From positions 1 through 20,534 of IMG/VR virus record IMGVR_UViG_3300020141_000156: a stretch of 20,534 bases of DNA. One strand, given 5' to 3'. Shown piece by piece: positions 864-19,779 of the stretch. This stretch comes from a virus. The notes below the pieces were generated by a model, which saw only the letters and a program-made list of their open reading frames with translations, was not told where the DNA came from and did no database searches. The number at the start of each line of letters is the position of its first letter. Position 1 is the first letter of the stretch. A program made the position numbers and the translations under genes.

Positions 864-2579
864 CTATCCGTCGCAAGATAAGCAATCCTCAGCAGTCCTT
901 GATCCTATATCTCCTCTAATGACTGAATCAGTTCGTAGGTAGTACAGAGTTTTAATGCCTAGCTTCCAGGCCGTCTGGTGTACCAGGTTGATAAACTTAG
1001 GGGAGTCGGTAGGATCAAATGATAGATTTAGTGACTGGGTTTGGTCGATATACTTCTGACGGACTGCAGCCTGTTCTACTAACGCTAGCTGGTTGATCTC
1101 AGTAAAGGTATAGAAAACCTCCTTGTCATAAGCCGGCATAATGTCTTCCGGCAGACCGGTTACCGAACCTCTATCCTTCATAATCTGGTCCCATACCTCT
1201 TCGGTGTTGTGACCTTTCTTTTCTAGATACTCCTCAAGCACGGGATTTTTTCTAATGAACGTTCCTTTGCCGGAGTTAAAAGTATAGATGTTAGCGGGGA
1301 TCGGTTCAATGCCGGCTGATACTCCTCCGGAGATAGTGCTGTTAGAGACAGTAGGAGCAATTGCAATAAGGTGAGTATTCCTCATCCCGGTACCCTTACA
1401 CCATTCCGGCTCTCCGTACTCTTGGGCTAGCTTCCGGGAAGCTGCTTCGGCTTGAGTTTTGATCTGAGCAAAGATAGTATTGGTCCATGCTGTAGAAGCG
1501 ATGGAGTTAAACGGCAAGCCCTTACCCTGTAGGAAAGAATGCCATCCTAGCACCCCTAACCCGATTGCACGGCCCTTCCTAGCCGAGCGGTTGGACCTAG
1601 CAAGAGAGTCCTTACCGTCACTCTTATATAAAAACTCCTCCATTACTCCGTCCAAGAAGTAAATCGAAGTCTCAATAAGATCGGTATCTTTCCATTCCTC
1701 GTACTTGGTTAAGTTAACTGAGCTTAAGCAGCAGATAAACGAATGCTCTTCGTCCGTATGCAAGGTGATCTCGGTACAGATATTGGTCATCGATACATCG
1801 AGGTTGTTCTTGATGTAGGCAGTTGGATTATCGTTGTTGACGTTGTCCTTAAACATGAGATAAGGTTCTCCCGTCTCTACTCTTGACTTGAGGATTTCAA
1901 CCCAGAGTTCGACTGCTTCTTGGTCCCGTCTTTCAAGCCTGCGCATAAACTCGTCATCGACAACCACGCACTGATGTAGGTTGAGACATTGACGGTTGGG
2001 ATCTCCTTTAGGTCTCCTAATTTGAAGGAATTCTTTGATATCTCCATGATTAATGTCCAGGTTAACTGAAGCGGCTCCTCTGCGAACGGCTCCTTGGTTT
2101 GTTGCAATAATAGTAGAGTCGTAGATCTTAGCCCACGGTACTACACCTTCAGAGTTTCCGTTACCGGTGATAGGGGTGCCTCTTTCTCTAACACGGGATA
2201 ATCCTACTCCTACACCCCCACCTAGAGACGAGAGACGCATTAGCTCTGCATTTGTCAGCCCTATGCCCCTAATGCTATCGGGTGTATCGATGCCAAAGCA
2301 TGAGATGGGCAAACCTCTTTCAGTGCCCGTATTCGAAAGCACGGGAGAAGCTAGATTCAACCAACCCTTCCACATATACTTGTAGAACTTAGGAGCAAGG
2401 TCCGGTCTTTTCAACCTTCCTGCTACAGCAGTAGAAACTCTTTGGTAAGCTTTCTTAGGAGTCTCACCCGGTAACAAGTACCCCTTCGAGATAGTTGCTA
2501 GAGACATCTCGTTCATCCATTCTGGAAAATCCTTCCCCACCTCCCAGGTACTGGGATCAACAAATATACTATTGTTCAT
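864..2579 (-). CDS. nrdA: Class I ribonucleoside-diphosphate reductase, alpha (large) subunit
   Basis: Catalytic subunit reducing ribonucleotides to deoxyribonucleotides, working with the NrdB encoded just upstream. All active-site elements of the family are visible: first redox Cys C94 in LPISCFGI; the N-x-C-x-E centre N266, C268 and E270 in TNICTEI; second redox Cys C283 in the CCLSSVNL stretch; the radical-relay tyrosine pair Y546-Y547 in LYYLRT; and a C-terminal CLSC pair (C566, C569) for re-reduction by thioredoxin or glutaredoxin. At 571 residues it is much shorter than E. coli or T4 NrdA (about 755-760). It begins almost directly with the catalytic barrel, so there is no N-terminal ATP-cone. 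It starts one base after the 172-codon gene behind an A-rich leader without a clear SD. Function is confident; allosteric behaviour is unknown. Confidence 0.95.
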   Translation of the reverse strand: MNNSIFVDPSTWEVGKDFPEWMNEMSLATISKGYLLPGETPKKAYQRVSTAVAGRLKRPDLAPKFYKYMWKGWLNLASPVLSNTGTERGLPISCFGIDTPDSIRGIGLTNAELMRLSSLGGGVGVGLSRVRERGTPITGNGNSEGVVPWAKIYDSTIIATNQGAVRRGAASVNLDINHGDIKEFLQIRRPKGDPNRQCLNLHQCVVVDDEFMRRLERRDQEAVELWVEILKSRVETGEPYLMFKDNVNNDNPTAYIKNNLDVSMTNICTEITLHTDEEHSFICCLSSVNLTKYEEWKDTDLIETSIYFLDGVMEEFLYKSDGKDSLARSNRSARKGRAIGLGVLGWHSFLQGKGLPFNSIASTAWTNTIFAQIKTQAEAASRKLAQEYGEPEWCKGTGMRNTHLIAIAPTVSNSTISGGVSAGIEPIPANIYTFNSGKGTFIRKNPVLEEYLEKKGHNTEEVWDQIMKDRGSVTGLPEDIMPAYDKEVFYTFTEINQLALVEQAAVRQKYIDQTQSLNLSFDPTDSPKFINLVHQTAWKLGIKTLYYLRTDSVIRGDIGSRTAEDCLSCDG

Positions 2580-2580
2580 T

Positions 2581-3099
2581 TTATTTTTTTATTAATATAA
2601 AACCTTCTCTGTAAGTATCAAACCCGTAATCCGGAATTCCCTCTAATCCTTTCTTAATAAAGGCTTTGTAAAGGTTTGACTTCTGAGAGATGTCTTTACT
2701 TCCTACATCTTTAGGACTGCCTTTTATATACAGTGCATCAACGTCGGTACTTGTTAGGAAATCTTTTATGGTAGCTACTACCGTTGAGTTGATAGTAAGT
2801 AGAGTCTTAACGTCAGTTTTAGCAGCTTGAGTTTCAGAATCTGATACGACGAACCCTACGTTGTAAACCTTTTTAAGGTTCCTATACTTTTGGGGTAAGT
2901 AGTACTGCCGATGCTCAGTTTCAGTAAATTCTTCAAAATCTACCGTCACTACTTCTGTAAAATCGTTGATGTCTACTAAGAATTTGTATTGATTAGCAGA
3001 AACTCTTTTCCAGTTTAACGGAGTAAGACTTGCGTCACCAATTTCTTTAAAAAGTACTTCCTTAATAAGAGGTACTAAAAGAGTACTAAAAGAAGCCAT
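2581..3099 (-). CDS. Hypothetical protein between nrdB and nrdA, 172 aa
   Basis: I do not recognise this protein. It lies between the two ribonucleotide reductase subunit genes, one base after the nrdB stop and one base before the nrdA start, so all three must be co-translated. The sequence looks like a soluble alpha/beta protein: an amphipathic N-terminal helix (SFSTLLVPLIKEVLFKE), a beta-rich segment with many Val, Thr and Phe (residues 35-60), and a Lys/Tyr-rich C-terminus ending in FILIKK. It has no cysteines, so it is not a glutaredoxin or thioredoxin, and it lacks the flavodoxin-like look of NrdI. Placement suggests either a reductase-associated factor or simply an inserted small phage gene; position alone does not prove a link. 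Confidence 0.7.
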   Translation of the reverse strand: MASFSTLLVPLIKEVLFKEIGDASLTPLNWKRVSANQYKFLVDINDFTEVVTVDFEEFTETEHRQYYLPQKYRNLKKVYNVGFVVSDSETQAAKTDVKTLLTINSTVVATIKDFLTSTDVDALYIKGSPKDVGSKDISQKSNLYKAFIKKGLEGIPDYGFDTYREGFILIKK

Positions 3100-3100
3100 C

Positions 3101-4084
3101 TTAGAAGATAGAAGCAGAGTCCCACTCCATATGACCTTTTGAGTAATTTGTTACTCTGCTGGCGAAGAAATCAGTGTGTTGCTTGCCGGCGATAACCATA
3201 TCAAACCACTTCATAGTCTTCAAAGCTCCTTTGTCAATCTCCGATGAAGGAATCAAAGGTTTAAGACCTAGGTCCCCCATCTTAGTATTTACACGGTGCT
3301 TGATAAAGTTCTTAAGCTCGTCCTTGCTTAGATTCTCTAGATCACCCATCTCAAAGATCTTATCAATAAACTTAAACTCTAGATCCAAGGCCATCGAAGC
3401 AGCTTTTTCAATTTCGCTAACAAGCTCCGGAGTCTTAAGCTCGGGATGCTCTTTCATTAGCTGACGGAATAACCAGCAGCCGGCTTCCGAATGAAGAGAT
3501 TCATCACGTACTGACCATTCAACAATCTGTCCAACACCCTTTAGTTTATTTCTCATCTTAAAAGATAGCAGTACGGCAAAAGAGCTGAATAGATTTACTC
3601 CTTCGGTAAACGCTGAGAAGATAGCTAGGGATCTTGCAACTTCGGTGTAATCGATAGCTCCGTTGTGACCATCCCGGACAGTCATCAGCGATTCGATCTT
3701 ATTCTTAGTAGCTTCATCCTCCATAAATTCAGCAAAGTTATCTAAACCTAACTCCTCGTTTAGCAGAGAGTAAGCCTCGGCATGGATAGTCTCGAATGAT
3801 CCGAACGTAGTTGCCATCATAATGATCTCGGGCTTGCGGAACCATTTAGTAACAAGTCCGGTCCAGTAATCGTTTACCACAGTCTCGGTCTGGGCGAAAC
3901 CTTTTAGGATTCCTCCTATTACATTCTTCTCGTGGTCCTTTAAGTTTGACTTCCAGTCAGTGATATCGTTGGCAATTGGTACTTCGGTGTGCAGCCAGTG
4001 GGCTTGTTGTTGCTTTAGCCAGTACTCATAGGCCTGGGGATATTCGAAGGGTTTGTAGACGATACGCTCTGTAAGGATGCTCAT
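3101..4084 (-). CDS. nrdB: Class I ribonucleoside-diphosphate reductase, beta (small, radical-generating) subunit
   Basis: Dimetal ferritin-like subunit that generates the radical for NrdA. With the start used here (MSILTERIVYKPF, 327 aa), the metal and radical residues are E67, E98, H101, Y105 (motif ETIHAEAY), E161, E195 and H198 (motif RDESLH). W30 and D194 match the radical-transfer pair and Y331 of the longer frame (Y314 here) is a candidate C-terminal relay tyrosine. The first ligand is Glu, where E. coli NrdB and Salmonella NrdF have Asp; the radical tyrosine is retained. The frame is open to an ATG at 4135, but those 17 extra codons would run through an intrinsic terminator (4114-4144), so the ATG at 4084 is preferred. 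The hydrophobic C-terminal end (SASIF) would dock to NrdA. Confidence 0.94.
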   Translation of the reverse strand: MSILTERIVYKPFEYPQAYEYWLKQQQAHWLHTEVPIANDITDWKSNLKDHEKNVIGGILKGFAQTETVVNDYWTGLVTKWFRKPEIIMMATTFGSFETIHAEAYSLLNEELGLDNFAEFMEDEATKNKIESLMTVRDGHNGAIDYTEVARSLAIFSAFTEGVNLFSSFAVLLSFKMRNKLKGVGQIVEWSVRDESLHSEAGCWLFRQLMKEHPELKTPELVSEIEKAASMALDLEFKFIDKIFEMGDLENLSKDELKNFIKHRVNTKMGDLGLKPLIPSSEIDKGALKTMKWFDMVIAGKQHTDFFASRVTNYSKGHMEWDSASIF

Positions 4085-4113
4085 ATCTTTATATATTTGA
4101 TAGATAGTTAGAT

Positions 4114-4144
4114 AAAAAAAGCCTTTGGGAATCATCCCTCAGGC
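4114..4144 (-). terminator. Intrinsic terminator between helicase gene and nrdB
   Basis: On the minus strand, arm GCCT-GA-GGGA pairs with TCCC-AA-AGGC around a 4-base loop: a 4-bp stem, a symmetric 2x2 internal loop and a second 4-bp stem. Seven T follow directly (4120-4114). This is a standard rho-independent design, placed 25 bases after the helicase stop. It would separate the replication operon from the ribonucleotide reductase operon or attenuate read-through. A second 5-bp hairpin (4143-4163) overlaps its base. Confidence 0.75.
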
Positions 4145-10991: not shown

Positions 10992-13121
10992 TTATCTTGT
11001 CCAGTCTTTTAGCTTAGTTGCATCTGTAGTCCAGGTAAAATGCCAATTTTCATTAACTGCTTTACCTTCGTACCAGGACCAGTTATACTTGTAGCCGTTC
11101 TTTTTGATCCAATCTTGAACTGCTTTACCGGTAACGTCTATAGCTTTGCCTTCTCCGTGATTGGAAGTACCCGGGAAGGCTGCTGCTACTGTTCCCCCGC
11201 TCCCTCTTTTTGTCCTTCTAGCTCCCGAAGTTACTGAAGTGTCAGTCCTAGAACCTCCTGTTTGAACGTATAAGTCCCAGTCAAAAATATCAGTCTGAAC
11301 TTGGAAAGTCCTATAAGAATCTGATATCGCTATTTCAACACCTTCTTTCTTTGCAGCTTCATACATAAGCTTAAAATCAGAAGCTGGGCTTCCTTTTAGT
11401 AGTTTATGTTGACCTATCCCGATTAACTCTAACTCATCTTCTGTGTGTCTACCATTTTTACCGGTAGCTCCAGCAGTTCTTCCGCTGGTACGACGTTTTT
11501 GCGAATCGCTTCTTTCTTTTAGGATGTTTGCTGTACTGTCTCCGGCCACAGTTCCTGAGGGAAGTAGGTACATCTGACCTTTCACAATAGTGTCCCAGCC
11601 GGCTTTAGATACTTTTTGTTCTAAAACTGTTATAATAAATGCTACTCGCTGTGCAGTTTTATCTAAGTACATCTTAGGAAGTACTTGAGGATTAATCTTA
11701 AAACTTTCCATAATACGAAATCCACTAATTCCTTCGAGTACCATAGTAAGCTCAAAAGGGAGTATAAAGTTATACTCCGGCCTATCCTCTTGCCCTAAAA
11801 TTTCTCTACTATAAGTAATATAATCTAGTATAATATTTTCTACATCATCAGGAACGTATAATTTGTCTTGATAGAGCCTGGTTAGATATTCGTTTAGTCT
11901 TGCTAGTAGGAGTTGGTTTCGGTCGTTACGTTCTGCTTCAGCATCATCTTTAGATAAATCCCCAACTGCTCTGGTTTTAACTACAGAATCTCGTAATCCT
12001 TCGTTAAGCTTCCTAAAAGCTGTAGCTTCTAATCCTAAATCAGTTCCCGATACTTGAGCCCCTATAGCAACCATTTTGGAAATTTGCGGGGAAAGTAAAC
12101 TCGTGAGGTTAAAACTTTTTACTACCGACCCAACTCCTATCACATTTATCTGTGGTATGTTTGCAGAAGATATTCTCTGCATGTACTTTCTATCGACTAT
12201 GGAAAAGCTATAGCTCTCTTCGTGATACTGTATTTGGTATTCATTAAAGTTCCCTGTTACTCTTTCAATATTTGCTAGAATAGCTTCTAGGTAGGTTACT
12301 AGATCAGTTTCTGGGTTATTTAGTGTTAAGGTATCTAAAGTGCGTACTAGAAAATCAATATTTAGGTAAATATCGTAAATTCTGTTACCGGTTTCATCAC
12401 CTCCAAAGTGGTTATTACGTGGAAGCAGACATACCGCCGGATCAACTGATACATGATCTTTATGAGTAGCAAACCTATTACCTTTGTAGAATTCTACATC
12501 AAATGTTGTACTATCTCCTGCAGTATTAAAGCTAAAAATAGGTGTAGTACGATCGCGTAATACAACATTGTTTAAAATTTCAACAAATAATCCCAGTTTA
12601 ATGTAAGCAAAAAATGTTTCCGAAGGACCTTCACCTACACCATCCCCGTTCTTTATTACTCCTTCTTCATCACGAGAAGTAACGCCTAATTGGTACAAGT
12701 AACACGTGTTGAAAGATTCCGGTATTGCTGATGTTTTTACATACTTCTTAAGCCCTGTAATTACGAGAGATTGATTTTGAATAGCTGTCTGTGCTTGTTC
12801 AGTTGCTTCTTCGTTTATTACTTTAATAAGAATGTAATGAAGTAGGGACCTAAACATTCTCCTATCTCCTTTGATAACTACGTTAAAAAGACTAGGAGTG
12901 GATGTTATCTGTCCTCTACTTAATAGGCTTGCATTAGCTTGATCCTGAGCCGATATAGGTTTAGAAGTGTTACGAGGACCTTCTCCGACTGGTGTAGGTA
13001 GTTGAAGGGATTCTAAGGTACCGGTTAAAGTCACCCCACTAGGGCGAGTATTATTTGCAGCTTCTATTCTTTGAATATCGGCAGGAGTTATTCCTCCAAA
13101 GTTTACTCCGTCTATTGGCAT
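10992..13121 (-). CDS. Baseplate hub-type protein with C-terminal M15 (VanX/VanY-like) peptidase domain
   Basis: Two-part protein of 709 aa. Residues 1 to about 520 form a large domain I do not recognise by motif, with beta-rich segments and a helical insertion (360-440); its position among tail genes suggests a baseplate hub or spike component. A charged, Ser/Gly-rich linker (525-560) follows. The C-terminal domain (about 565-709) carries the zinc peptidase signature of family M15: SYR at 602-604, S-x-H-x(6)-D as SNHGEGKAID with H655 and D662, and E-x-x-H as ENWH with E691 and H694. These match the zinc ligands and catalytic Glu of VanX (H116, D123, E181, H184). It likely cuts peptide bonds in peptidoglycan during infection, as gp5 lysozyme does in T4 by another chemistry. 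The peptidase call is firm; the hub call is contextual. Confidence 0.85.
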   Translation of the reverse strand: MPIDGVNFGGITPADIQRIEAANNTRPSGVTLTGTLESLQLPTPVGEGPRNTSKPISAQDQANASLLSRGQITSTPSLFNVVIKGDRRMFRSLLHYILIKVINEEATEQAQTAIQNQSLVITGLKKYVKTSAIPESFNTCYLYQLGVTSRDEEGVIKNGDGVGEGPSETFFAYIKLGLFVEILNNVVLRDRTTPIFSFNTAGDSTTFDVEFYKGNRFATHKDHVSVDPAVCLLPRNNHFGGDETGNRIYDIYLNIDFLVRTLDTLTLNNPETDLVTYLEAILANIERVTGNFNEYQIQYHEESYSFSIVDRKYMQRISSANIPQINVIGVGSVVKSFNLTSLLSPQISKMVAIGAQVSGTDLGLEATAFRKLNEGLRDSVVKTRAVGDLSKDDAEAERNDRNQLLLARLNEYLTRLYQDKLYVPDDVENIILDYITYSREILGQEDRPEYNFILPFELTMVLEGISGFRIMESFKINPQVLPKMYLDKTAQRVAFIITVLEQKVSKAGWDTIVKGQMYLLPSGTVAGDSTANILKERSDSQKRRTSGRTAGATGKNGRHTEDELELIGIGQHKLLKGSPASDFKLMYEAAKKEGVEIAISDSYRTFQVQTDIFDWDLYVQTGGSRTDTSVTSGARRTKRGSGGTVAAAFPGTSNHGEGKAIDVTGKAVQDWIKKNGYKYNWSWYEGKAVNENWHFTWTTDATKLKDWTR

Positions 13122-15803: not shown

Positions 15804-18173
15804 TTATATTCTGTAAGTGTTTCTGGTTAATGCTGCGCCTCCGGCCATAACCGTACCAACTTCGTGATACCCTAAGTATACATTTGCAGGTTTATTTTCT
15901 CCTAACTTATCAAGCTTACTCATAAGCTGATTCAAAGGAATAACTGCTTCTGCTTGTCCGCCTTCTCCTACGTGTGCTAGAGTTGGTTTAGTCACAATTC
16001 CTCCTGATGCTAGCTTTGGTGCATCACTGGTAAGTAGTCCGTAAACTCCTCCTAAACCTAATCCTATCAGTGCTCCTGGTACTCCTCCAACCATCGCACC
16101 CATGCTTGCTCCTGTTAGGGCTGTAGATCCTATTCCGGCCCAATGGGCTCCGGTTTCGTTACCTGATTCTGCTAGATTAGATTGTAGTGCGTTTAATCCA
16201 TATGCTCCGATTCCTAACCCTAAGCCTCCGGCAATACGTCCCATTCCCGGCATACGCATGCCTCCGGCAGCAGGTACCGCAGCACCGGCGCCTCTTTGGG
16301 CTTGGTACATCGCAGACATTTGAGAAGAATTAAGTCCCTGGCCTGCCATTGACTTTTGAAAAGCGTTCCAACCCATTCCGGAAGAACCGGCAGCTAGTGT
16401 ACTCATACCGGCAGCTGCGCTGGCAGCTCCTCCGGAAAGTTTACCCATGATTCCGGTCATGTTAAGTAATTGATTACCTAATCCTGTAAATCTTAGTGCT
16501 GCAATTCCTCCTAATACGATTGCTAACATCTTAGCTCCACCGACTACGTTCTCCATCAATTCAGCAAGCTTCTCTACTGCAATAGCAATACGCTCCTGAA
16601 TTGACATGTTTTCCATTTGATCGGCCAATTCGCCTTCTCCTAATCTTCTTCTGGCTTCTTCTACCCCGTATGTCTTAACGTCCTGTAGGTAGCGCTGCTT
16701 AGCTTGATCTATTCCTTGAATGTCTTCGTAACCGGCTTGTTTTTTAAGCTTTACTAAGGTTTCTTGATCTAGCAACATCTTACCCATATCCTGACGGGTC
16801 AATCCTAAAGATTTGGCAAGTGCTTCTTGAGCAATTACGTTCATCCTTCCAAATTCAGCTGCAGAACCTACATTTTTAGCGATTTCATCCGCTAGAATAT
16901 CTTGACGGCCCATTAGGGCTGCGGCTCTAGCTCTTTCTAAATTAAGCTCTCTACCGGTTAGTAGTTCGGCTTCTAATTCGCTAGCTATAGAACTTTCAAA
17001 ATCAAGTAAACTACTTGCAGATGATTCGATCATCTGTAGGTTTAGTCCGTACTGTCGGGCTTTGTATGCAGCTGCTGCTAGGTTTACTCCTTGCTGCTGT
17101 AGAGTGAGTACGGTAGCTGCTGATAGTCCTGATATATCTTGTAGGATTGCTTTTTCGTCGATAGCAAGTCCGGTTGCTATATTCCTAGCACGGACCTCTC
17201 CTACTATATTAGATAAATAATCTTTAGCATTGCCGCCAATCTGTGCCTGTATTTTTGACATAGTAGCAGCTTGGTCGGCTGATAATCCTAGGCGGGTGGA
17301 CATTATAGAGAAAGACTCAGCAACGTCTCCGGAATACATCACGGCTGTTCCCAGAGCCTTATTTAGATCAGTGTTAGCTTGTACAAGTTTCTTACCAGTC
17401 TGAAATGCGTAGTCACTCTCTCTGGCGATCTTATTAAACTCCATACTAACCTTGCTAGCTTCATCGTAACTAAGGTTTAACTGGTTAGCAATATTACCGG
17501 TCTTTTGATCAACAGATGCAAAGAGAGTTGCAAGTAACGGCAGTACAGAGCTCCTACCAATCTCTAAAATACCAGCCGCCATCGGATTTATACCTTTGTT
17601 TGCGGCATCTTTAGCAGCGGCGGCGGCTCGATCGAAAGCACCGCCAAGAGCATTACCTGCAACCGGTATTCCTCTAAGGAAGTCTCCTATTTTACTAAAT
17701 TTTTCTGCAGAGATAGCAACCTTCTTTGCCTGGTCTGCAACTTGAGCCATTCCAGCAGCCTGTGCTTTGATTGTTTCAACGCCGTCGTATAGAGCTTCTA
17801 AGGTTCTCTTTATACCTACTAGCTCTTGTGCAGAAGCAGTTTTTGCTTTCTCTAGGAGAACTACACGATCGATCTCTAGTGAGACCATCGCTCTTTTAAT
17901 CTTCTGAGTTTCTTTAAGGATAGCTTCTTCGCTACGTTGCTGACTGACTACCTCAGATAGTTCGGAGGCCAGGTTTTCGTAGCTACTAGCTGTTTCGCGT
18001 AAAGTACGGTTAATACTTATACTCAATCCATCCGTAGCTTGAGCCATGCCCACGATCTCCCTAGCAATACTTCTTAAGGTACCGGCAGTTTCTTTAAACT
18101 GGGTAGCTGATACTAGCGGGTCAACATTACCGAATGGTGCTGGTTGTGGGTTGTTTGGATCGTTAACTGCCAT
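15804..18173 (-). CDS. Tail tape measure protein
   Basis: Sets tail length and is ejected through the tube at infection. Typical features: long helical, coiled-coil-prone N-terminal half (residues 25-170, rich in Ala, Glu, Lys); Ala/Leu-rich repeats of helices to about 540; a hydrophobic segment at 542-562 (MLAIVLGGIAALRF within it); a Gly/Ala/Met-rich low-complexity region (575-720); and the common tape-measure C-terminal motif ASGGIVTKPTLAHVGEGG with AEAVIPL (722-747). At 789 aa, the usual 0.15 nm per residue rule suggests a tail tube near 120 nm; this is an estimate. It lies directly downstream of the two putative chaperone genes and upstream of baseplate genes, the canonical order. TCCTCC, not an SD, precedes the ATG. 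Confidence 0.93.
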   Translation of the reverse strand: MAVNDPNNPQPAPFGNVDPLVSATQFKETAGTLRSIAREIVGMAQATDGLSISINRTLRETASSYENLASELSEVVSQQRSEEAILKETQKIKRAMVSLEIDRVVLLEKAKTASAQELVGIKRTLEALYDGVETIKAQAAGMAQVADQAKKVAISAEKFSKIGDFLRGIPVAGNALGGAFDRAAAAAKDAANKGINPMAAGILEIGRSSVLPLLATLFASVDQKTGNIANQLNLSYDEASKVSMEFNKIARESDYAFQTGKKLVQANTDLNKALGTAVMYSGDVAESFSIMSTRLGLSADQAATMSKIQAQIGGNAKDYLSNIVGEVRARNIATGLAIDEKAILQDISGLSAATVLTLQQQGVNLAAAAYKARQYGLNLQMIESSASSLLDFESSIASELEAELLTGRELNLERARAAALMGRQDILADEIAKNVGSAAEFGRMNVIAQEALAKSLGLTRQDMGKMLLDQETLVKLKKQAGYEDIQGIDQAKQRYLQDVKTYGVEEARRRLGEGELADQMENMSIQERIAIAVEKLAELMENVVGGAKMLAIVLGGIAALRFTGLGNQLLNMTGIMGKLSGGAASAAAGMSTLAAGSSGMGWNAFQKSMAGQGLNSSQMSAMYQAQRGAGAAVPAAGGMRMPGMGRIAGGLGLGIGAYGLNALQSNLAESGNETGAHWAGIGSTALTGASMGAMVGGVPGALIGLGLGGVYGLLTSDAPKLASGGIVTKPTLAHVGEGGQAEAVIPLNQLMSKLDKLGENKPANVYLGYHEVGTVMAGGAALTRNTYRI

Positions 18174-18205: not shown

Positions 18206-18451
18206 CTATTTTTTAGCAACCTTTGTTACATAACTAGGTACCTGCACCATTTTACCGCTATTTTCAGCGGTAGCTTCCTGTACTCCTGATATTTTCTTCT
18301 GTTGCTGTTCTAGCTCTCGGTTCTGCTTATCGTAGTACTCCTTAATTTTTTCATACGTAAAATTACGTAACCAGATAGGCATACTGTAGATAGTGTCCCA
18401 ACTGTATCCTCCATTTCCATGAAAAACTATTTCATGGATTTGACTAAACAT
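18206..18451 (-). CDS. Second tail-assembly chaperone-like protein (possibly expressed by frameshift)
   Basis: With the ATG at 18451 (MFSQIHEIVFHGNGGYSW) the product is 81 aa and starts seven bases after the stop of the upstream 248-codon gene. The body (MPIWLRNFTYEKIKEYYDKQ) is aromatic and charged, resembling small proteins I recall beside gp26-like proteins in T4-like phages; the C-terminal 30 residues look disordered. The frame stays open upstream, inside the 248-codon gene, back to a TTG at 18544, and the residues just before the ATG (GLTLSYRAA) look coding. A run of seven T (18479-18485) in the overlap would allow a slip that joins both frames into one protein of about 332 residues, as tail chaperones G/GT do. 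Separate initiation is the conservative reading. The gene lies directly before the tape measure. Confidence 0.7.
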   Translation of the reverse strand: MFSQIHEIVFHGNGGYSWDTIYSMPIWLRNFTYEKIKEYYDKQNRELEQQQKKISGVQEATAENSGKMVQVPSYVTKVAKK

Positions 18452-18458
18452 TGCTGCT

Positions 18459-19205
18459 CTATAGCTTAACGTCAGGCCAAAAAAAGGTAATCCCGATTGG
18501 TAGGGCAGCCTCCTTCTCTGCTCCGTTTTCGTCTTCGTATTCAAATAGTAGGTTTACATCTGGTGCAACTTTACTGTACTCCTCTCTTAGAGCTCTAGCA
18601 TCTTTTGCTAGTAAGTATCCATCTACAAACTCTCTGATATCTTTTTGGTCTCTTAATCCATTAACTGAAGTAATAAGGTATTTTAACCGGGTAGTGACTT
18701 CTGATAGATTATCTTTGTTAATTTTTTGAAGTCCTTTAATTTCCTGGTCGATCTTCTTTTCGTCTCCGTGAGTAAGAAGTTTAAACGTTAACACATCTCC
18801 GGTTGAAGGCAAGTTAAAGTCAAATTCATTGTGACCTCTTTTAATATTGCTTTCGGATTCAAATCGAGTATTTAGTAGTGAGAGGTCAACCGAAGTGGGT
18901 TTTCCATTGAAATCAAATTCATAGTCCTTACCGTAGGAAAGAATACGGGCAGCTATCATAATAGCATTTTTATCCCCGATAATCAAATCGTCATAATTAA
19001 ACTCCGTTACTAGCATTGACTTCAACAACCTGTCAATAACAGTACCGTTCTTAATGTAGTTTTGGTTGGTAAGAATGTCTTCTTCTTTTGCTGTCATGTA
19101 CTTCATTTCGATAGTACCGCCGGATAGAGGATGCTCTTCTGGATATAGTAAGCCTTTTGACGGAAGTTCTACTGTTTCAGTAGGTAACTTAAATTTTGAT
19201 TCCAT
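18459..19205 (-). CDS. gp26-like baseplate/tail assembly protein, probable tail-assembly chaperone
   Basis: Protein of 248 aa with the conserved start ELPSKGLLYP (13-22), then a GGTIEMKYMTAKEEDILTN block (29-47) and an IIGDKNAIMIAARILSYG stretch (near 76-93). I associate this pattern with the T4 gp26-type baseplate hub assembly family. T4 gp26 carries cysteines after the last block; here none are present (FDFNG instead). The position between tail tube and tape measure is that of the tail-assembly chaperone in most tailed phages, and an overlapping second frame follows, as in G/GT systems. A terminator and an A/T-rich palindrome lie upstream, so this may be the first gene of its own transcript. 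It ends WPDVKL after the T7 run at 18479-18485. Confidence 0.78.
   Translation of the reverse strand: MESKFKLPTETVELPSKGLLYPEEHPLSGGTIEMKYMTAKEEDILTNQNYIKNGTVIDRLLKSMLVTEFNYDDLIIGDKNAIMIAARILSYGKDYEFDFNGKPTSVDLSLLNTRFESESNIKRGHNEFDFNLPSTGDVLTFKLLTHGDEKKIDQEIKGLQKINKDNLSEVTTRLKYLITSVNGLRDQKDIREFVDGYLLAKDARALREEYSKVAPDVNLLFEYEDENGAEKEAALPIGITFFWPDVKL
18479..18485 (-). other. T7 homopolymer, candidate slippery site
   Basis: Coding strand ACC TTT TTT TGG in the frame of the 248-codon gene, six codons before its stop. The downstream frame is +1 (equivalently -2), and both kinds of slip can re-pair perfectly on the T run. An SD-like AGAAGGAGG lies 23 bases upstream (18509-18517), farther than usual stimulators. 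A one-base homopolymer error would also explain the split. Confidence 0.4.
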
Positions 19206-19293: not shown

Positions 19294-19779
19294 TTAGAAG
19301 TTCAGTACGCAATAATCCATTGCAAGCTGCAGTTCAACGTTGATGGCATCTTCTGTAGACCAGTTATACTGACCGAAGTTAGAAGAGACTACAAATGAAC
19401 CTTTGATGATCCACTCACCGACTATATCACCTACTGGTCCTAGAGCATTCAAGGTAACGTCCTTCTTGTAGAAGTCCGAGTACCCGGCCCGGCCCGTAAC
19501 TGACTCGTATCCAAGTCTAGCCCACTCCATGACCGCCTGTGCACCTGAAGGTGTGATGGGGTCGTAAAGGCTGAGGGTCATGTTCTGCCACTCTCTCTTA
19601 CCTCTAATCTTCCTGTAAGTGTTGATGTGATCAAGCTTGATGACACCGTCTGTGAAGGAAGGTGAAGAGACGCTCTTAACCATGTAAGATGGAATCCCAT
19701 CGATGTACATAATAAATCTGTTAGCTACCTTCGGCTCGAAGGCTGTAAACATAATTTCGTTTGGATCTAGTACTGGCAT
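19294..19779 (-). CDS. Tail tube protein (gp19-like)
   Basis: Major inner-tube protein of the contractile tail, stacking as rings through which DNA passes. The 161-residue length matches T4 gp19 (163). The beta-rich sequence has the family look: an N-terminal FTAFEPKVANRFIMYIDGIPSYMVKSV, then a DHINTYRKIRGKREWQNMTLSLYDPI block and AVMEWARLGYESVTGRAGYS with a C-terminal GEWIIKGSF and NWSTEDAINVELQLAMDYC end. It follows the sheath gene by 32 bases, the standard gp18-gp19 order, and is itself followed by a strong terminator, consistent with high-level expression. The leader AGACCAGCAAA before the ATG has no evident SD. Confidence is high from composition, length and order together. Confidence 0.93.
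   Translation of the reverse strand: MPVLDPNEIMFTAFEPKVANRFIMYIDGIPSYMVKSVSSPSFTDGVIKLDHINTYRKIRGKREWQNMTLSLYDPITPSGAQAVMEWARLGYESVTGRAGYSDFYKKDVTLNALGPVGDIVGEWIIKGSFVVSSNFGQYNWSTEDAINVELQLAMDYCVLNF

What the first reader, a model, noticed from the sequence alone, without database searches (positions are those of the whole stretch)
18449..18544. Possible programmed +1/-2 frameshift (or homopolymer error) joining two tail-assembly chaperone-like genes
Seen: the 248-codon gene has a T7 run (18479-18485) six codons before its stop. The next frame overlaps it, opens only with a TTG at 18544, and already looks protein-like before its first ATG (LTLSYRAA before MFSQIHE). Slipping +1 on TTT, or -2, would give a fusion of about 332-333 residues. 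Known: tail chaperones upstream of the tape measure are often made by frameshifting; -1 is usual and Mu uses -2. Inferred: this T4-like pair is such a system. Counter-readings: separate initiation at ATG 18451, or a real T6 (which would fuse the frames outright).
Basis: partly seen in the sequence, partly recalled or inferred. Interest (0 to 1): 0.6.

Follow-up and report, generated by a model that had tools for sequence, protein, structure and literature searches.

The report
Phage tail gene with +1 frameshift
In a large group of environmental T4-related phages, ribosomes almost certainly skip one base at a conserved run of T's to make a long version of a tail-building helper protein as well as a short one, a job that phage T4 gives to two separate genes.

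Summary
The window's T4 gp26-like gene (PF12322; between tail tube and tape measure) carries T7 six codons before its stop, and the next frame overlaps it in the +1 phase. It is neither chance nor a sequencing error. 260 of 263 relatives (IMG/VR contigs plus named phages) keep the +1 overlap. T7 is intact in most but interrupted at least 7 independent times (TTTCTTT, TTTCTAT, TTCTTTT, CTTTTTT) with the phase kept; this excludes T6 error, homopolymer transcriptional slippage and -2 shifting as the shared mechanism. Codons TTT TTT|GGC CTG are near-invariant although GGC and CTG are rare. All 226 distinct relatives keep a 0-frame stop within 6 codons (64% expected). 69 of 200 have no start codon for the second frame. 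Two relatives that split the genes have lost the site. Best reading: programmed +1 ribosomal frameshift making a short (248 aa) and long (332 aa) tail assembly chaperone, the lambda G/GT logic in T4-like phages, where T4 uses paralogous genes 26 and 51. Chaperone frameshifting, and T4-like chaperones, are already published; I found no report of this +1 version, but the key paper could not be read. An upstream GGAGG is conserved in part of the family, role unknown. No expression data.

The parts
18459..19205 (-). 0-frame ORF, T4 gp26-like baseplate hub / tail assembly chaperone, short form (248 aa)
   Evidence: PF12322 T4_baseplate 28.6 bits (cut-off 24.5); phrog_150 baseplate hub 5e-13; AF2 model pLDDT 89.6 matches SP-15 baseplate hub (TM 0.81) and other T4-like hub proteins
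18479..18485 (-). slippery run T7, in frame ACC TTT TTT TGG; +1 slip UUU to UUY in the P site
   Evidence: T7 in most relatives; variants TTTCTTT, TTTCTAT, TTCTTTT, CTTTTTT keep the +1 phase; at least 7 independent losses of T7 on the tree
18471..18486 (-). 16-nt conserved shift-site block CTTTTTTTGGCCTGAC, read as FFWPD in frame 0 and FFGLT in frame +1
   Evidence: nucleotide conservation near 2 bits per position in 70 relatives; both frames' residues conserved at the junction
18459..18461 (-). 0-frame stop TAG that ends the short form, within the +1-frame codons TAT AGA
   Evidence: 226/226 relatives stop within 6 codons after the site, 64% expected under synonymous recoding
18206..18478 (-). 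+1-frame extension (90 aa after the shift) carrying the conserved GLTxxYR..FxQIHEIVFHGxGGYxWxTVYxMPIWLR domain; long form = 332 aa
   Evidence: fused translation P0001; alignments A2 and A3; AF2 model: three helices, pLDDT about 90 in the core
18509..18513 (-). Shine-Dalgarno-like GGAGG about 24-28 nt upstream of the T run; role unknown
   Evidence: GGAGG within -45..-15 in 63/70 close relatives versus 0.5% background; weaker in the Immutovirus-like (60/100) and Microcystis-phage-like (10/53) groups
19294..19779 (-). tail tube protein gp19-like, upstream neighbour
   Evidence: phrog_4542 tail tube 2e-17
15804..18173 (-). tape measure protein, downstream neighbour
   Evidence: phrog_34082 tail length tape measure protein 6e-6

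Best explanation
One gene makes two tail assembly chaperones. Most ribosomes read it in frame 0 and stop at TAG, giving a 248-residue gp26-like short form. A fraction shift +1 at TTT TTT T (the Phe-tRNA in the P site re-pairs from UUU to the overlapping UUU or UUC, one base is skipped) and continue in frame +1, giving a 332-residue form with an extra helical C-terminal domain. By analogy with lambda gpG/gpGT, the short form coats the tape measure protein encoded just downstream, and the long form's extra domain recruits the tail tube protein. Shown here by comparative sequence evidence: the phase, the shift site, protein-level conservation of both frames, selection to keep both products, and PF12322 membership. 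Inferred: that the shift is ribosomal, which of the two codons slips, the efficiency, and the chaperone roles.
For: Phase conserved in 260/263 readable relatives. Near-invariant TTT TTT|GGC CTG against codon usage. Frame-0 residues are conserved up to the site and frame +1 residues from it. A short-form stop is retained in 226/226 (64% expected). No start codon for the second frame in 69/200. Site variants exclude -2 and homopolymer slippage. L196, which has split the genes, keeps the residues FLWPD but with changed codons (TTC CTT TGG CCA GAT), and its C-domain has its own ATG; L191 likewise. T4 has two PF12322 genes (26 and 51) while the frameshift-type phage records searched show at most one. 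Neighbours are tail tube and tape measure, as for lambda G/GT.
Against: No experimental data; no raw reads or peptides. No conserved stimulatory RNA structure. The slipping codon is not unique: TTTCTA fits the first codon, TTCTTT the second. The C-terminal domain matches T4 gp51's tail only weakly (hhalign P 0.026). Relatives share ancestry, so counts are not independent events. In the window ATG 18451 could allow re-initiation.
Confidence: 0.9

Rival explanations
1. The C-terminal ORF is a separate protein, started at its own codon (ATG 18451 in the window) by coupling to the ORF1 stop.
For: The window has an ATG 7 nt after the stop. L191 and L196 do carry the domain as a separate ATG-started gene. 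LR756511 has a TAATG overlap.
Against: 121/200 relatives have no ATG and 69 no ATG/GTG/TTG before the conserved block. Conservation of frame +1 starts exactly at the T run, upstream of any such start. The slip site is lost only where genes are separate.
Confidence: 0.05
2. Transcriptional slippage at T7 produces T6 mRNA that fuses the frames without a ribosomal shift.
For: T7 is a homopolymer at the right place in most members.
Against: Members with TTTCTTT, TTTCTAT or TTCTTTT keep the same phase and overlap; T7 was broken at least 7 times independently.
Confidence: 0.04
3. A -2 shift, as in phage Mu, gives the same phase.
For: For T7 alone -2 is equivalent in phase and gives a product one residue longer (sequence).
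Against: TTT CTT, TTT CTA and TTC TTT offer no -2 re-pairing for the P-site tRNA.
Confidence: 0.02
4. Sequencing or assembly error (real T6, one fused gene).
For: Homopolymer in a metagenomic contig.
Against: More than 160 distinct T7 sequences and dozens of non-homopolymer ones share the phase; a 0-frame stop is actively kept.
Confidence: 0.01

Closest known systems
Lambda gpG/gpGT tail assembly chaperone frameshift
   Same: One gene upstream of the tape measure yields short and long forms through a shift near the 3' end
   Different: Lambda shifts -1 (PMC5009743) on a different slippery heptamer (own knowledge); here +1 on UUU-UUU; no sequence similarity to the lambda proteins was seen in the family searches
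T4 gp26 / gp51 (T4-like tail assembly chaperones; Vladimirov et al. 2022, PMID 34826709, not readable here, known through PMC10885494 and PMC12846349)
   Same: PF12322 family; a short member and a longer member with a C-terminal extension
   Different: T4 uses two separate paralogous genes; here one gene plus a +1 frameshift. PMC12846349 cites polyT signals in T4-like chaperone genes as -1
prfB (RF2) +1 frameshift
   Same: +1 P-site slip of a pyrimidine-rich codon onto an overlapping codon; some relatives here have CTT T
   Different: No stop codon in the A site at the shift; the SD-like GGAGG is about 25-30 nt upstream rather than adjacent
Vandenendeviridae/Andersonviridae chaperone frameshift (phage Adele, PMC12846349)
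   Same: polyT-containing shift site in a tail chaperone gene of a myovirus
   Different: -1 phase, GTTTTT motif, different phage families
HSTV-2 +1 tail chaperone frameshift (called very likely in PMC5009743)
   Same: +1 direction in a myovirus tail chaperone
   Different: Archaeal virus; site not compared here

Membership tests
T4 gp26/gp51 family (PF12322 T4_baseplate) | Match to the family profile over the curated cut-off | tested here: met
   28.6 bits versus 24.5, residues 26-230; T4 gp26 and gp51 both match
T4 gp26/gp51 family (PF12322 T4_baseplate) | Same fold as other T4-like hub/chaperone proteins | tested here: met
   BFVD matches to SP-15 hub and T4-like hub assembly proteins, E down to 2.6e-18
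T4 gp26/gp51 family (PF12322 T4_baseplate) | Long member carries a homologous C-terminal extension (gp51 tail) | tested here: inconclusive
   hhalign P 0.026 over 43 columns, aligned to the gp51 tail
Frameshifted tail assembly chaperone (G/GT type) | Gene between major tail protein and tape measure | tested here: met
   tail tube at 19294-19779, tape measure at 15804-18173
Frameshifted tail assembly chaperone (G/GT type) | Conserved phase and slippery site joining two overlapping frames | tested here: met
   260/263 relatives; near-invariant site
Frameshifted tail assembly chaperone (G/GT type) | Both short and long products made, with function in tail assembly | not testable with these tools
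   Selection for both products inferred from the kept 0-frame stop and conserved +1 frame; no expression data
Canonical -1 frameshift (X XXY YYZ) | Downstream frame in the -1 phase | tested here: not met
   Downstream frame is +1 (-2) in the window and 260/263 relatives
Phage Mu-type -2 frameshift | tRNA re-pairing two bases upstream possible in members | tested here: not met
   TTTCTT, TTTCTA and TTCTTT members give mismatches on -2
prfB-type +1 frameshift | Stop codon in the A site and SD spaced a few nt upstream | tested here: not met
   A site is TTT, CTN or TGG; GGAGG lies about 25-30 nt upstream of the T run

The most novel reading that the evidence does not exclude
A new +1 shift architecture: Phe-tRNA slipping UUU to UUY, stimulated not by a stop codon or 3' structure but by a distant SD-like GGAGG about 25-30 nt upstream (or by the nascent peptide IPIGxxFF). 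It would be widespread in T4-superfamily environmental phages, as the alternative to T4's gene 26/51 pair and to the split genes seen in L191/L196.
Probability: 0.25. Interest if true: 0.6.

Novelty: new variant of a known kind. Interest (0 to 1): 0.45.

Why it matters
T4 has been called the exception to the conserved tail chaperone frameshift (PMC5009743). Here a large group of T4-related phages does appear to shift, in the +1 direction, and the same protein family shows three ways to supply a short and a long or C-terminal product: frameshift, paralogous genes (T4), and split genes (L191, L196). It also means the second product is mis-annotated in sequenced isolates: Flavobacterium phage immuto lists a 36-aa fragment downstream and Microcystis phage Mel-JY01 an ORF overlapping its gp26-like gene.

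Tried and rejected
Search for relatives with ORF2 alone found none in IMG/VR, so ORF1 was used. A conserved RNA structure near the site: none. Rfam and tRNA scans of the window: nothing. Solved-structure searches of ORF1: no match by sequence or fold. hhalign of the ORF1 alignment with the gp51 alignment was not significant, although PF12322 joins them. LR756511 was first taken as a -1 case; its second ORF may simply start at a TAATG, so I do not claim -1 there. The key paper on T4-like chaperones (PMID 34826709) is not held.

Full report
Setting. The window is a 20.5-kb virus record. On the minus strand its tail genes run sheath, tube (19294-19779), the 248-codon gene (18459-19205), the overlapping ORF (18206-18544) and the tape measure gene (15804-18173). 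The 248-codon gene is a T4 gp26-type protein (PF12322, 28.6 bits against a 24.5 cut-off; phrog_150). Its AF2 model (pLDDT 89.6) matches predicted baseplate hub proteins of T4-like and jumbo phages, and no solved structure.

Observation. T7 at 18485-18479 is read ACC TTT TTT TGG CCT GAC GTT AAG CTA TAG in frame 0. The +1 frame reads TTT GGC CTG ACG TTA AGC TAT AGA and continues for 90 codons after the shift. A +1 shift gives a 332-residue protein.

Relatives. 80 IMG/VR relatives at 59-76% identity all show the same phase and nearly the same site. Further groups were drawn with the Flavobacterium phage immuto, Microcystis phage Mel-JY01 and LR756508 proteins. Of 263 loci whose gene end is readable, 260 have the +1 overlap (5 of them cut by the contig end), including very distant members: Rhodothermus phage RM378, Streptococcus phage SagM-GXN1 and Listeria phage LIS04.

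Direction and mechanism. Sites are TTTTTTTGG (194 loci), TTTCTTTGG (38), TTTCTATGG (4), CTTTTTTGG (3), a few ending TAC or TTC, and TTCTTTTGG in a 12-member group. A tree shows that T7 was broken at least 7 times with the phase unchanged. A -2 slip gives no pairing at TTTCTT, TTTCTA or TTCTTT, and homopolymer slippage has no long homopolymer there, so +1 is the only mechanism that serves the whole family. Nearly all variants offer a UUU (or CUU) followed by a pyrimidine, so a Phe-tRNA moving from UUU to UUY is the simplest picture. TTTCTA points to the first codon, TTCTTT to the second, so the exact codon is open.

Both frames look translated. Frame-0 residues are conserved up to FFWP, frame +1 residues from FFGL on. 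GGC and CTG are rare (8% and 1.8% of their codons) but invariant in 70 non-redundant relatives, as expected if WPD in frame 0 and GLT in frame +1 are both constrained. Every one of 226 distinct relatives has a 0-frame stop within 6 codons of the site; recoding frame +1 with synonymous codons would leave one in 64%. So the short form appears to be kept by selection. Of 200 relatives with a recognisable C-terminal block, 121 have no ATG and 69 no ATG, GTG or TTG for an independent start.

A natural control. L191 and L196 are the only relatives of this group without the overlap. Each has the C-terminal domain as a separate gene with its own ATG, 2-5 nt behind the ORF1 stop, and each has lost the shift site. 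L196 keeps the residues FLWPD but writes them TTC CTT TGG CCA GAT.

Function. T4 carries two PF12322 genes, 26 and 51, while frameshift-type phage records show at most one by the Pfam profile, and one each in the nine contigs searched with a closer protein query. Papers citing Vladimirov et al. 2022 state that some T4-like phages carry a short and a fused long chaperone gene instead of shifting (PMC10885494), and PMC5009743 describes the lambda G/GT shift as conserved in long-tailed phages except T4. The ORF2 domain aligns weakly with the tail of gp51 (P 0.026) and is predicted as three helices; among its weak fold matches are proteins from phages LE4 and ctgXL3, which also hold gp26-like matches, and one annotated tape measure chaperone (Citrobacter phage Moogle, E 2.3). 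The chaperone role is therefore inferred, well supported for the short form and analogical for the extension.

Stimulators. RNAalifold finds no conserved structure. GGAGG occurs 15-45 nt upstream of the site in 63/70 close relatives against 0.5% background, mostly at -31, with glutamate codons GAG there although GAA is preferred. It is weaker in other groups. At that distance it does not fit the known spacing of SD stimulators (own knowledge) and is left unexplained.

Limits. All evidence is comparative. Relatives are not independent, and the main prior paper could not be read, so part of this may already be known; the +1 phase and this site were not found in the papers searched.

Noticed in passing
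window 18509-18513 and relatives: GGAGG conserved about 25-31 nt upstream of the shift site, with GAG codons used where GAA is normal; role unknown.
   Followed up: partly
L191:3223-3543 and L196:3223-3513: Two relatives with the C-terminal chaperone domain split off as its own ATG-started gene and the slip site lost.
   Followed up: yes
L082:3854-3964 (NC_055915.1) and L083:3746-3982 (PP395634.1): Isolate genomes annotate the +1-frame product as a short hypothetical protein; the fusion is missed.
   Followed up: partly
A3 members (ORF2 domain): Two members match DUF6760 (PF20546, best E 0.0013), a family of unknown function; possible link between the chaperone extension and DUF6760 proteins.
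   Followed up: no
L088 (LR756511.1) around 3690-3850: A 595-kb phage genome has the second ORF in the -1 phase, with T TTT TTC upstream but also a TAATG stop-start overlap.
   Followed up: partly
window 10992-13121: Predicted tail/hub protein whose C-terminal part looks like a VanY-type D-Ala-D-Ala peptidase (by eye only).
   Followed up: no
window 864-4135: Two ORFs that look like ribonucleotide reductase large and small subunits, next to replication genes (by eye only).
   Followed up: no
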